Source: Bactericera cockerelli (Eukaryota > Arthropoda > Insecta > Hemiptera > Triozidae). Taken from it: a DNA stretch of 64,000 nt. Shown in pieces: positions 3,101-59,751 of this stretch. The position numbers and the translations under genes are program-made. The DNA lies in NCBI GenBank assembly GCA_024516035.1, contig CM044955.1, positions 9,846,318 to 9,910,317 on the forward strand, written 5' to 3'. How positions within the stretch are numbered: position 1 is the stretch's first letter; every line of letters begins with the position of its first letter. The notes below the pieces were generated by a model. That model had not been told where the DNA came from. It saw nothing but the letters and a program-made list of their open reading frames with translations, and searched no databases.

Positions 3101-6100
3101 CGCGCTCTTTGGTTAAAAAATAATTTCAAATTTCAACCTCTGAAAAATGGGAAGAAATATTTTATTTGTGAGGTGTTTGTTATGTTGTTTTGTTAAAAAT
3201 AAAATTGTAAAAAAAAAAAATACAAATTTCATTTTTTTTCTCATCCTCAGGTGGACAAAAAGTTTCTGTGGCCCCACGGCATTACTCCTCCCATGAAGAA
3301 TGTGAGGAAGCGGAGGTTTCGCAAAACTCTGAAGAAGAAATATGTGGAAGCGCCCGAGATTGAGAAGGAAGTGAAGCGACTCCTCCGAGGTAATAATAAT
3401 AATAATAACACTCTTTAGTGGAAGGTAACCACCAGGCGAGGTTAGTGCTCAAAGCATTTTCTACCACCTAACCCTCAGAGACTTATTATTATGTGGTCAC
3501 AAACTCAAATTAATGAGGAAAAATTCGTGCACTGGATGGGATTCGAACCAACGGATCCCTACGCTACCCGGATTACTAGACTAGCGCGAGGTGAGACGGA
3601 ACCTCCAACACTCGGCGTGATATGATCAATATGACCATGCAGTTGAAAGTGATGGTTTAAAAAAAACCCCCTCTACTGTTTTAGAGATTAAAAATTGAAT
3701 AAATAAAACAACAGGATAAATGAGTGAAAGATAAGATAAAGAGCTAGTTATTTGTGTTATTATGTCACAATTTTTAGTGGGTAGCATTGACATTACGAGA
3801 ACTATTGCTTATGCATCATATCATATCTCCAACTAACCGTCTTATTCCAATATCTCGTAATGCCTCCACTGGCCGTTGCCCACTCTGCAACTACCCCAAT
3901 TGTCCTCGCGAGGTTAGGGTAGGCCACGAAATCCAAAGTACAGAGCCGAAAAAATTCCGACCCCGCCGGGATTCGAACCCGAGTCACCTGGAGTGGAAGC
4001 CGAGCATGCTACCGCTAGGCCAAGTGACTACTAGATGAGTACAGAAATTCAGCAATAGTTCACATTTTTTTGACAGGCTCTGTGGCTCTCTCCATTTTAA
4101 AGGGTAGATAATGAGAGAGGTAAGAAAATAAGGAAAGCCAAAAGAGGGAGAAAGAAAATATAAGCCTTTATCTTGCATTAGATAAATGATTATAAAATAA
4201 AGTACATTAATGATATAATGAATAATCTTATTATACATGCCCGGCCTGTGCTCCATTCTTTGTGTCATATATCAGAGAAGTGAGCTTTGAGAAAATCAAT
4301 GGAAGTGAAAAAAAAGTCGATGCTATTATGAAGGTTAGCTGTTCTCTGAAACCTGCCTGATTATGGGGGAATTTTGCAATAAGCTAAGAAGAAGAAGATA
4401 ATAATAATAATATCGCCTTATTTATACTACCCGACTACTTTTTTTATTTATTATTATATTTATTTTTATATCTTATTTATTAAGACTACTAAAGTCCCAT
4501 TATTCCAGCAGTAAGCCCAACACATATTATTATGTGGTAAAAATCCCAAATGGGAGGATAACTTGTCATGTCCCGGCTGGGTTTCGAACCCACGACCTCT
4601 GGAAACTTTGGATTCACAGAGTGCCGCCTTTACCACTGAGCTACCGGGACAGACAAAGATAACCATTTTTTTTTTTTAATTTATGATTCCCCGTGCAGGT
4701 GACAGCGAGGCAGTGCATGTGAAGTGGGACCTGGTGATGGAAGAAGTGGACGACAAGACCAAAGCTAACGCCCACCCCATCAAGGAGGAGCCCCTGGCTC
4801 ATGGCGTCGCCCACAACGCCCATCCCATCAAGTCTGACCTGGGTATGTATAGGGTGACCATACGTCCCGCTTTCGGCGGGACGGTCCCGCTTTGGAGCCG
4901 TTTGTCCCGCTGTCCCGAGCGATCTCTTCGGGACGCTAAAATGTCCCGCTTTTGACCAAAATCATTAAAATGTCCCGCTTTTTTATTTTCCTTATCTTAT
5001 TATAAAGAAATATTTAATAATTACCTAACGAAGATCGAGCATACTTCGTAAGCTAGTATTTTTTCTTTTTCTTTTCAATGTAGGTCCAAACACACAAAAA
5101 CACAGAGCGCAATTTTGTCTATTAATTTTTGTGGTAGGTACCAGTGCACCGCCAGGAGCGCCGCCAAAAAGCGTACTTTTCGAAAGTTTCGAAAAAACTA
5201 ACAAAAAAATGGTTTTTTTTCTTCTTATTTTTTTTTATTAAAAATTTCAAATCTCATTAATCCCATTTTTACCTACATGCTAACACTGGGTGACTGGGTC
5301 GCTATAGACAATACCTCTACAGCTACTCTATTTCACACCAGAAACTCCTATCATAAGGAAGACCTGGGTATGTATCATAAGGAAGACCTGGGTATGTAGC
5401 ATAAGGAAGACCTGGGTATGTATCATAAGGAAGACCTGGGTATGTATCATAAGGAAGACCTGGGTATGTATCATAAGGAAGACCTGGGTATGTATCATAA
5501 GGAAGACCTGGGTATGTATCATAAGGAAGACCTGGGTATGTATCATAAGGAAGACCTGGGTATGTAGCATAAGGAAGACCTGGGTATGTAGCATAAGGAA
5601 GACCTGGGTATGTATCATAAGGAAGACCTGGGTATGTAGCATAAGGAAGACCTGGGTATGTATCATAAGGAAGACCTGGGTATGTAGCATAACGAAGACC
5701 TGGGTATGTAGCATAAGGAAGACCTGGGTATGTATCATAAGGAAGACCTGGGTATGTAGCATAAGGAAGACCTGGGTATGTATCATAAGGAAGACCTGGG
5801 TATGTATCATAAGGAAGACCTGGGTATGTAGCATAAGGAAGACCTGGGTATGTATCATAAGGAAGACCTGGGTATGTAGCATAAGGAAGACCTGGGTATG
5901 TATCATAAGGAAGACCTGGGTATGTAGCATAAGGAAGACCTGGGTATGTATCATAAGGAAGACCTGGGTATGTAGCATAACGAAGACCTGGGTATGTAGC
6001 ATAAGGAAGACCTGGGTATGTATCATAAGGAAGACCTGGGTATGTATCACAAGGAAGACCTGGGTATGTATCATAAAGAAGACCTGGGTATGTAGCATAA

Positions 6101-9100
6101 GGAAGACCTGGGTATGTATCATAAGGAAGACCTGGGTATGTATCATAAGGAAGACCTGGGTATGTATCATAAGGAAGACCTGGGTTTGTATCATAAGGAA
6201 GACCTGGGTACGTATCATAAGGAAGACCTGGGTATGTAGCATAAGGAAGACCTGGGTATGTAGCATAAGGAAGACCTGGGTATGTATCATAAGGAAGACC
6301 TGGGTATGTATCATAAGGAAGACCTGGGTATGTATCATAAAGAAGACCTGGGTATGTAGCATAAGGAAGACCTGGGTATGTATCATAAGGAAGACCTGGG
6401 TATGTATCATAAGGAAGACCTGGGTATGTATCATAAGGAAGACCTGGGTATGTATCATAAGGAAGACCTGGGTATGTATCACAAGGAAGACCTGGGTATG
6501 TATCATAAGGAAGACCTGGGTATGTATCATAAGGAAGACCTGGGTATGTATCATAAGGAAGACCTGGGTATGTATTATAAGGAAGACCTGGATATAAACT
6601 GAGGCACAAATTTAGCGGAACGGGTAGGTATTTTCTCATATAACGTGTGTATTTCTTGTTGGACAAAAGCATTTTTCATATTTTTTCTAATTGAGGAAAT
6701 CACACAAAAATTGGTACAGAGATAGCAAAAACATGAAGGCCAATTTTCATAATTGAATGAAGTGCTTGTCATTGTCGACCTTTCCCATACAGGGTGTAGA
6801 AAAAAACTGTTTTTCAATGATTTTTTCAAAATTCATTATTTTGGATTAAGAGTAATATTGTCTTGCTTTATGTATTGATCCTCATTCCTTCTTGTCTCAA
6901 AAATGTTGAGCCTTGATGGACACGTCACTATTCCTCTGAATCCAAAATAATGAATTTTGAAGAAATCATTGAAAAACAGTTTTTTTTCTACACCCTGTAT
7001 AGGAAAGATCGACAGTGACAAGTACTTTATTCAATTTTGAAAATTGGCTTTCATGTCTTTGCTATCTCTGTACCAATTTTTGTGTGATTTCCTCAATTAG
7101 AAAAAATATGAAAAATGCTTTTGTCCAACAAGAAATACACACGTTATATGAGAAAATACCTACCCGTTCCGCTAAATTTGTGCCTCAGTGTATATCTCCA
7201 TTGACTTCATCCCATATCAGTTTTATGTTGCTTTTGGGGTCGGCATTGTTCAACCTCATGGTTGAGGTTGGTAGGGTGGAGCACGTTTTTTTTTTATGGC
7301 TGGATGCCCTTCCAAAGGCCAACGATTCTATTTGGTTTTAACGTCCTGATCTGGACGGGGGTGTTACCCTTCATTCGCTGGGAATCGTACCAGCTACCCA
7401 CATTAACCTCACCCAGCCTGGGTAGGGCCGGAAATGCCAGCCTCACATGTTAGGAGGGAACAGAATTTTCTTCGAAAAGTCTGCTCCAACCGGGGATCGA
7501 ACTCGGGATCTCTGGACTACGGGCAGTAGTCACAACCATTACGCCACGTAGAAAAAATTCCAGGTCCCTCCAGTTCTTATAGTGTGTCTTATAATAAGTA
7601 GTGCACTGTCACTGGTGCATTATTCTACCGTGCACTGGTAGTCAAGTGGTTAAGGTGCTAGTCTAGTCACCCAGGTAGCGTAGGGATCCGTTAGTTCGAA
7701 TCGCACCCAATGCATGAATTTTTCCTCATTTATTTAAATATATGACCACATAATAATAGGACTCTGAGGGTTAGTTACTTTGAGCACTAACCTCGCCTGG
7801 TAGTTACCTTCTACTAAAGAGTGTTATTATTATTATTATATATCCAGGCCTGACTGTATTTTTATAAGGATAAGGATTTAAAAGAAAAGTCCAAGTCCTT
7901 CTGATGGTTGATCGCACATAGAAATAGATAAGTGGTTCAGGACGAGCCAACTTTGAAATAAAGTTGGCTGGAGACCATCACTCACCTCTCCAGCTGTAGC
8001 TAAGCTGGCTACAACAACAACAACAACAACCATATTCTATTATTATTATTATTATTCGTCCCGGAAGCTCAGTGGCAAAGGCGGCACTCTGTGAATCCAA
8101 AGACTCCAGAGGTCGTGGGTTCGAAACCCAGCTGGGACATGACATGTTATCCTCCCAATTAGGATTTTTACCACGTAATAATTTGTCTTGGGCTTACTGC
8201 TGGAATAATGGGACTTTAATAGTCCTAATCGGGCAGTATAAATAAGGCGATATTATTATTATATTCTATTATTATTATTGTCCTCAGCGGAGCACGATAT
8301 ATTCGGAGGTGCTGTGAGTGACAGCGAGGATGAGGACAATAACATGGTGAACATCATGGATCTGGACGAGGATAATAGTCGACTCAGCCGCTTCTCCGGG
8401 GAAATGGACAGTCGACTCTCGGACTCTGCCACCTACCAGGTATGCGTTACTTCCGAAAATGTCTTATATTTTTAAACTTCAATCGCAAACAAATTGCCTT
8501 TTTATTTACAATATTTGGAGATAGGTACATATTATACAAAATAAACAATAGCAGCTGAGTAGGGGTCTAAATATTAGATATCGGAAGTTTGTGTTCGTAA
8601 AAAAAAAAAATCATATTTTTAAGATATTGCGAGAGAAGAGAAATTAAAACGAGAGACGCGACCGTCCGGCGCGGTAACTCGGTAACGTATCATATTAAAC
8701 TGTTAAAAACTTGTTAAAAATCATATTTTTAACAAGTCATAATAACTTCCTGAGCAACTTTGATTTGTTTTATAAGACACTAGCGGGCTGTCGCCCGCTT
8801 TGCGGGCCGAGGCATGGCCGTGAAAGCAAAAAATCCTTTTTCGCCAATGGCAGGTGTTGTAGTGGGAATTTCGAAAAATCCCGTCTAATTGCACATCTAG
8901 ACTATAAGACAAAGCTACCTACCAAATTTCAGCTCGCTAGGTATTACGGTTTGGGCTGTAGAGCGATGATCAGTCAGTGACTTTGACATTTATATATTAA
9001 GATTCAATTAAATTCTTGTTTTTATTTATTTATTGTTTTACTGTTTATTTTTATTGAATGGGCGGGCCAAATAGTATTGAATTACATAGTTTTACATTGT

Positions 9101-59696: not shown

Positions 59697-59751
59697 CTCC
59701 AGGTATGTGCGAAGACAGCAATTACATCATTTGTCTTGAGCCGTTTTAGAC

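What the first reader, a model, noticed from the sequence alone, without database searches (positions are those of the whole stretch)
4836..59710. Tandem arrays seeded at splice junctions in both gene families
Six tandem duplications in the TAF7 and B2 introns contain or abut a copy of the adjacent 5' or 3' splice site: 5343-6594, 10762-10974, 11121-11460, 56698-57170, 57875-58600 and 59316-59710. Four involve donors and two involve acceptors. Other minisatellites in the window (50271-51010, 46612-46815) do not. The two genes are unrelated, so this may be a genome-wide process. One possibility is template switching or R-loop-associated slippage at exon-intron borders. Another is selection for decoy splice sites. 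I know of no named system of this kind, but novelty is not established.
Basis: partly seen in the sequence, partly recalled or inferred. Interest (0 to 1): 0.88.

Follow-up and report, generated by a model that had tools for sequence, protein, structure and literature searches.

The report
Splice-site mirage minisatellites in a psyllid
In this insect genome (likely a psyllid), short stretches spanning exon-intron borders are repeated in tandem, up to about 140 times, inside the neighbouring introns of several unrelated genes, a structure already known as "mirages" in amphioxus, and the extra splice sites are likely unused by-products of a DNA duplication process that probably favours these borders.

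Summary
Real, but with a named precedent. Of the six arrays reported, four carry a true copy of a splice junction in their units, one has a donor copy on each side but none in its units, and one only abuts its acceptor. The genes are TAF7 and a DUF4803 gene; the closest named TAF7 proteins are psyllid. The window's own genome could be searched. The pattern recurs in conserved genes not chosen for it: 8 of 46 donors (chaperonins 8 of 36, proteasome 0 of 10). A paired TAF7 copy 80 kb away carries the same arrays at other lengths, plus a 39-copy donor array that the window copy lacks. The excess at borders is clear for long arrays (8 of 10 against 1.3-2.0 expected) and in a GC-matched comparison, but it depends on the null, and one permissive null shows none. 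Splice dinucleotides in the copies are neither purged nor specially kept and spacing ignores reading frame, which argues against selected decoys. Minisatellites duplicating intron/exon boundaries are described in amphioxus as "mirages", so this is a new lineage for a known kind. Whether borders are true duplication hotspots, and why, stays open.

The parts
117..12342 (+). TAF7 gene, eight exons in the window (117-197, 1049-1138, 3251-3389, 4699-4842, 8288-8439, 9639-9984, 10975-11144, 12298-12342); N-terminal exons are not in the window
   Evidence: Pfam TAFII55_N; match to psyllid orthologues P0005-P0008; junctions read
4836..4850 (+). exon D donor (exon ends 4842, GT at 4843) and the 15-nt sequence copied in the array
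4850..5348 (.). insertion that separates the donor from its array; 4850-5251 is a dispersed repeat (another copy at C1:9835330-9835717); absent from the paired gene copy, where the array starts at the donor
5349..6595 (+). 24 bp x 52 array carrying the exon D donor; 139.8 units in the paired gene copy
10760..10970 (+). 116 bp x 1.8 duplication ending 5 bp before the exon G acceptor (10975); acceptor not copied
11113..11462 (+). array carrying the exon G donor (11145): a first copy at +58, then 48-bp units (x 5.9); 27.1 units in the paired copy
56160..56697 (+). DUF4803 gene, exon 1 (donor 56698); reading frame broken inside the exon
56698..57171 (+). array beginning at the exon 1 donor, unit about 57 bp
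57848..58658 (+). 121-bp array carrying the exon 2 acceptor (58601) and 64 nt of exon 2; found in the genome only here and in the paired copy
58601..58742 (+). DUF4803 exon 2
59083..59255 (+). DUF4803 exon 3 (donor 59256)
59315..59696 (+). 32 bp x 12 array without splice site in its unit, lying between two copies of the exon 3 donor
59696..59708 (+). second copy of the exon 3 donor GCTCCAGGTATGT (first copy at 59249)

Best explanation
These arrays are minisatellites of the 'mirage' kind: segments straddling an exon-intron border are repeated in tandem on the intron side, likely founded by single DNA duplications that later expanded there, and the copied splice sites are probably not used. Shown: units carry exon and intron sequence of the adjacent border; the exon keeps its place and the copies lie on the intron side; the same borders carry arrays of different length in a paired gene copy, and one border has a 39-copy array in one gene copy only; in the window's acceptor array the copies diverge stepwise away from the exon. 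Inferred: the founder is a replication- or repair-type tandem duplication of very roughly 50-150 bp; duplications inside exons are removed by selection, while those across a border survive because the exon-proximal site still works; later slippage or unequal exchange changes and multiplies the unit. Predicted, untested: splicing uses the exon-proximal copy. The excess at borders suggests, but does not prove, that borders are also hot for formation.
For: True junction copies in 4 window arrays. Paired gene copy: exon D array starts at the donor with 139.8 units against 52, exon G 27.1 against 5.9, exon C 39.2 units against none. The exon D and exon 2 arrays match only their own locus and the paired copy in the 565-Mb genome. 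Direction exon to intron: 61, 60, 58, 57, 55 of 64 exon bases kept with growing distance. A long exon copy (75 nt compared, 74 identical) survives at the far end of the exon G array of the paired copy. Recurrence at 8 of 36 chaperonin donors. Excess: 8 of 10 arrays of score 400 or more against 1.3-2.0, P about 0.001; chaperonins alone 3 of 5 against 0.6-0.95, P 0.01-0.045; GC-matched 6 of 36 against 2 of 354, chaperonins 4 of 26 against 1 of 252.
Against: 0 of 10 proteasome donors. A null in which pseudo-junctions may fall inside arrays shows no excess (6 of 33 against about 6), and per position junctions are no richer in local copies than controls (9 of 90 against 11%). With exact matching and loose overlap P is about 0.1. 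Of the 10 arrays counted at 13 of 16, one match is to a donor 8 kb away and is probably chance. In the paired copy the acceptor series is not strictly ordered (60, 61, 59, 58). In the paired copy two donor arrays (exons D and G) could be used in frame without a stop, so non-use is not forced there. An array over an apparent stop codon hints that coding borders, not splice sites, may be what matters.
Confidence: 0.58

Rival explanations
1. Borders are not hot. Tandem duplications arise everywhere; those inside coding exons are lost, and border-spanning ones are simply tolerated and eye-catching.
For: Intron-interior arrays are common too: 33 arrays in all, most not at junctions. Permissive null without excess. 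0 of 10 proteasome donors. An array over an apparent stop codon.
Against: Excess for long arrays and in the GC-matched comparison, also in chaperonins alone.
Confidence: 0.29
2. The copies are kept by selection as decoy, backup or alternative splice sites.
For: The copies keep canonical GT/AG; some units (24, 48, 57, 63 bp) are multiples of 3, and in the paired copy the exon D and G arrays are open in frame. Array-bearing donors score weaker on a local matrix (6.2 against 8.9, P 0.02, helped by one outlier).
Against: GT/AG varies no less than expected from the unit as a whole in the largest array (1.6% and 0.5% against a mean of 1.6% in 190 units). Nearest-copy offsets are multiples of 3 in 7 of 17 donor cases, near one third. 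In the window, using the next copy gives a stop or a frameshift in 5 of 5 cases.
Confidence: 0.06
3. The arrays come from introner-like or other mobile elements carrying splice sites.
For: Dispersed repeats sit next to or inside several arrays (sequence).
Against: The exon D and exon 2 arrays, the two that could be searched, occur nowhere else but the paired copy; units contain the host gene's own exon sequence.
Confidence: 0.03
4. Assembly artefact: collapsed or expanded repeats or unpurged haplotypes.
For: Reading-frame breaks in DUF4803 exon 1 in both copies suggest indel errors or a decayed gene; many genes occur twice on one contig.
Against: The two TAF7 copies carry the same border arrays with different lengths and flanking insertions, and copies diverge in order. 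Exact lengths may still be wrong.
Confidence: 0.04

Closest known systems
'Mirage' minisatellites of amphioxus: Adh3 and globins BflGb6 and BflGb9 (PMC3087553, section 16 read); PGBD5 and TnC (PMC3902484, one passage)
   Same: [quoted passage not shown] lengths differ between gene copies; existing exon keeps its place
   Different: An insect, not a cephalochordate; some longer arrays (about 140 units); paired copies not proven to be alleles; no RNA evidence here, whereas that paper reports RT-PCR
[quoted passage not shown] seen only as a reference entry in PMC2572611)
   Same: By its title, a minisatellite that supplies many donors
   Different: By its title the copies are used as donors; here use is untested and predicted to be absent
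Intron gain by tandem genomic duplication (PMC3443670, passages; Zhuo 2007 seen as a reference entry)
   Same: Tandem duplication that multiplies splice-site sequence
   Different: There an exonic AGGT is duplicated and a new intron is born; here borders of existing introns are duplicated and the exon is unchanged
Internal tandem repeats at exon-intron boundaries in human segmental duplications (PMC2812944, passages)
   Same: Variable minisatellites at exon-intron boundaries in recent gene copies
   Different: There they change exons, introns and transcripts; no such change is shown here

Membership tests
[quoted passage not shown]
   4 of 6 window arrays; exon parts of 3-96 nt over all cases with a copy
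Mirage minisatellites (amphioxus) | Both 5' and 3' boundaries affected | tested here: met
   Donors 7 of 44 and acceptors 2 of 46 at 16 of 20 or better
Mirage minisatellites (amphioxus) | Minisatellite unit lengths (10-72 bp Adh3, 150-160 bp globins) | tested here: met
   Units 19-155 bp
Mirage minisatellites (amphioxus) | Repeat number differs between haplotypes | tested here: inconclusive
   Numbers differ between paired copies, but alleles and paralogues cannot be told apart
Mirage minisatellites (amphioxus) | Regular splicing is not disturbed | not testable with these tools
   No RNA data
Intron gain by tandem genomic duplication | A new intron position absent from relatives | not tested
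   No relative's gene structure was held; read-through ends of 4 DUF4803 relatives suggest the same intron after exon 1
Introner elements | Dispersed family of similar insertions that create introns | tested here: not met
   The exon D and exon 2 arrays occur only at their locus and its paired copy; the other arrays were not searched genome-wide
Minisatellite providing multiple splice donors (6-16 gene) | Copied donors are used in transcripts | not testable with these tools
   No RNA data

The most novel reading that the evidence does not exclude
Exon-intron borders are germline hotspots for tandem duplication in psyllids, and perhaps in animals generally: a process tied to transcription or splicing (such as R-loops or G-rich structures at GC-rich exon ends) keeps making copies of splice sites, so that a sizeable share of donors carries a mirage array and new introns and exons are seeded continuously.
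Probability: 0.3. Interest if true: 0.8.

Novelty: new member of a known kind. Interest (0 to 1): 0.57.

Why it matters
Mirages are reported in amphioxus genes with the mechanism called unclear. The same structure in an insect, at a countable rate and with paired gene copies that differ in having it, turns scattered cases into something measurable. It bears on how introns lengthen, how extra splice sites can accumulate without evident harm, and how new introns or exons may start.

Tried and rejected
Relatives in viral contigs by TAF7: none. Counting single positions as the unit of the test: junctions 9 of 90 against controls 11%; not a fair test, since array interiors count as controls, but it shows no excess. 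Pseudo-junctions placed anywhere: no excess. GC of the exon end as full explanation: mean GC differs (0.585 against 0.465, P 0.0012, 44 donors), but a cut at 0.5 over 60 donors is not significant (8 of 28 against 4 of 32, P 0.20), and a GC-matched excess remains. Array 2 of the finding as a splice-site copy: rejected. Introners: rejected for the two arrays searched.

Selection of genes: the chaperonin genes were chosen after a family search whose table showed long open frames in some exons, so the first six may be slightly biased; of C4 only 10 kb were read, and further chaperonin matches were not fetched. The seventh gene (six donors) and the proteasome donors (first 12 qualifying matches, one per pair) were taken by rule. 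Dropped: 2 of 12 proteasome stretches with no visible donor (L062, L067); 8 of the 14 stretches, which are second copies of genes already counted (of these L056 and L059 show the array of the first copy, L055 lacks the 20-bp array of its first copy); two doubtful chaperonin donors.
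Full report
What was checked. The six arrays of the finding are present. The first gene is TAF7 (Pfam TAFII55_N). Its closest named relatives are the psyllids Cyamophila, Cacopsylla and Diaphorina at 68-69%, and one unnamed assembly at 72%. Eight exons with canonical GT/AG ends join to match those orthologues, including the last, YQKLATMLDTPPDC. The second is a DUF4803 gene. The source is therefore probably a psyllid; the species is unknown.

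Observation. I compared seven arrays of the two genes with their junctions and with up to 1500 control windows each. Arrays at 5349, 11179, 56701 and 57848 contain true junction copies (scores 15, 24, 16, 24; control maxima 10, 22, 9, 13). Arrays at 10760, 58924 and 59315 do not. The last has the donor on both sides.

The window's own genome. It is searchable (565 Mb, 1032 contigs). A second copy of the region lies 80-100 kb upstream, colinear over about 55 kb; the pieces listed are 92-98% identical, lower ones having been filtered out. Chaperonin and proteasome genes also often occur twice on one contig, 128 kb to 1.4 Mb apart, some inverted. These may be unpurged haplotypes or segmental duplications; I cannot tell. 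In the other copy the exon D array starts right at the donor and has 139.8 units, so the 506-bp gap in the window is due to a later insertion. Exon C has its own 39-copy, 34-bp array there, absent from the window copy. Exon G has 27.1 units instead of 5.9. The DUF4803 arrays also differ: 11.8 against 6.3 units at exon 1, 3.7 x 144 bp against 6.5 x 121 bp at exon 2, and 3.0 against 12 at exon 3. About 12 kb beyond the window a further acceptor (CACAG|GTCCCTACTCAGGCTGG) has nine copies in a 52-bp array. The end of the same open frame, at an apparent stop codon, has a 30-bp array. That exon is an open frame without a Pfam match.

Other genes. Six chaperonin genes were read. Donor copies lie in four of them: two in C8, two in C3, one in C4 and a weaker one in C1 (12 of 16 bases). 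C5 has no donor copy but one acceptor copy (17 of 20), and C6 has none. A 76-bp duplication in C8 abuts an acceptor without copying it at 12 of 16 or better. A seventh gene, read only on the donor side, has copies at two of six donors, with at least 41 and 36 nt of exon in the unit. Ten proteasome donors have none. Outside the window's genes this makes 8 of 46 donors.

Statistics. Moving the arrays: 7 of 33 touch a junction within 5 bp against 2.7 expected, P 0.018. Moving pseudo-exons: 10 of 33 hold a junction copy at 13 of 16 bases against 2.9-4.6, P 0.0007-0.011, one of the ten probably a chance match to a distant donor. For arrays of score 400 or more it is 8 of 10 against 1.3-2.0, P about 0.001, and for chaperonins alone 3 of 5 against 0.6-0.95, P 0.01-0.045; with exact matches 4 of 10, P 0.003-0.02, and 2 of 5, P 0.02-0.11. 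With stricter matching and looser overlap over all arrays P is about 0.1. Pseudo-junctions allowed anywhere show no excess. In a GC-matched comparison at GC 0.45 or more, 6 of 36 junction windows have arrays against 2 of 354 intron windows, and for chaperonins 4 of 26 against 1 of 252. Junction arrays were labelled by hand there, units are longer than the 40-nt windows, and the window's genes were picked for having arrays, so the fold is inflated.

Mechanism. The direction is exon to intron: in the window's DUF4803 acceptor array the copied 64 exon bases match the true exon at 61, 60, 58, 57 and 55 positions with growing distance; in the paired copy the order is 60, 61, 59, 58. At the far end of the exon G array in the paired copy sits a long exon copy, 74 of the 75 nt compared being identical to the exon, while the repeated unit has 24 nt of exon. 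The founder was therefore probably larger than the present unit. GT varies by 1.6% and 0.5% in 190 units of the exon D array, against a mean of 1.6%. Nearest-copy offsets are multiples of 3 in 7 of 17 donor cases, paired copies counted apart. In the window, using the next copy gives a stop or frameshift in 5 of 5 cases; in the paired copy two of three would stay open in frame. This fits DNA-level tandem duplication with copies carried passively. Donors outnumber acceptors (7 of 44 against 2 of 46). My inference is that an upstream acceptor copy with its own branch point competes more harmfully than a downstream donor copy. Array-bearing donors have GC-richer exon ends in 44 donors (P 0.0012), not significant with a simple cut in 60.

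What is known. [quoted passage not shown] Amphioxus PGBD5 has 60 and 108-bp repeats over splice sites, and TnC is named as another case (PMC3902484, one passage). G-quadruplex motifs are enriched about 3-fold near splice junctions in a study of other animals (PMC9065059, passages), a lead for why borders might be unstable. Ten searches of the held library (some lists capped) showed me no report from an insect; most subscription papers are not held. Zhuo 2007 and the 6-16 minisatellite paper were seen as reference entries only.

Verdict. A real and recurrent feature, and a new lineage for a known kind. What is open, and testable with an annotated genome and RNA-seq, is whether borders are true hotspots.

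Noticed in passing
56160-56697: DUF4803 exon 1 changes reading frame inside the exon, in the window and in the paired copy; either indel errors of the assembly or a decaying gene.
   Followed up: partly
C1:9764435-9820000 against the window and about 14 kb beyond it: Paired, colinear second copy of the region; several chaperonin and proteasome genes are paired on one contig too. Unpurged haplotypes or segmental duplications.
   Followed up: partly
6591-7196: Fold-back element with 216-nt arms at the far end of the exon D array; another copy at C1:9797124-9797722.
   Followed up: no
27224-27476: 54-bp repeats inside a piggyBac-type transposase reading frame (25634-27763, minus strand), coding for an acidic repeat.
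   Followed up: no
L012:2760-3750: 30-bp array that begins over the apparent stop codon of an open frame about 12 kb beyond the window: a coding border without a splice site.
   Followed up: partly
50268-51013: 20 bp x 37 minisatellite with no recognised exon nearby.
   Followed up: no
56698-57171: Part of the 57-bp unit reads, in reverse, like the tail of a dispersed repeat seen near 8000 and 57700 (by eye), as if the duplication took in a repeat next to the donor.
   Followed up: no
60725-63877: Long open frame with retroelement domains (DUF1759, DUF1758, DUF5641) downstream of the DUF4803 exons; described only.
   Followed up: no
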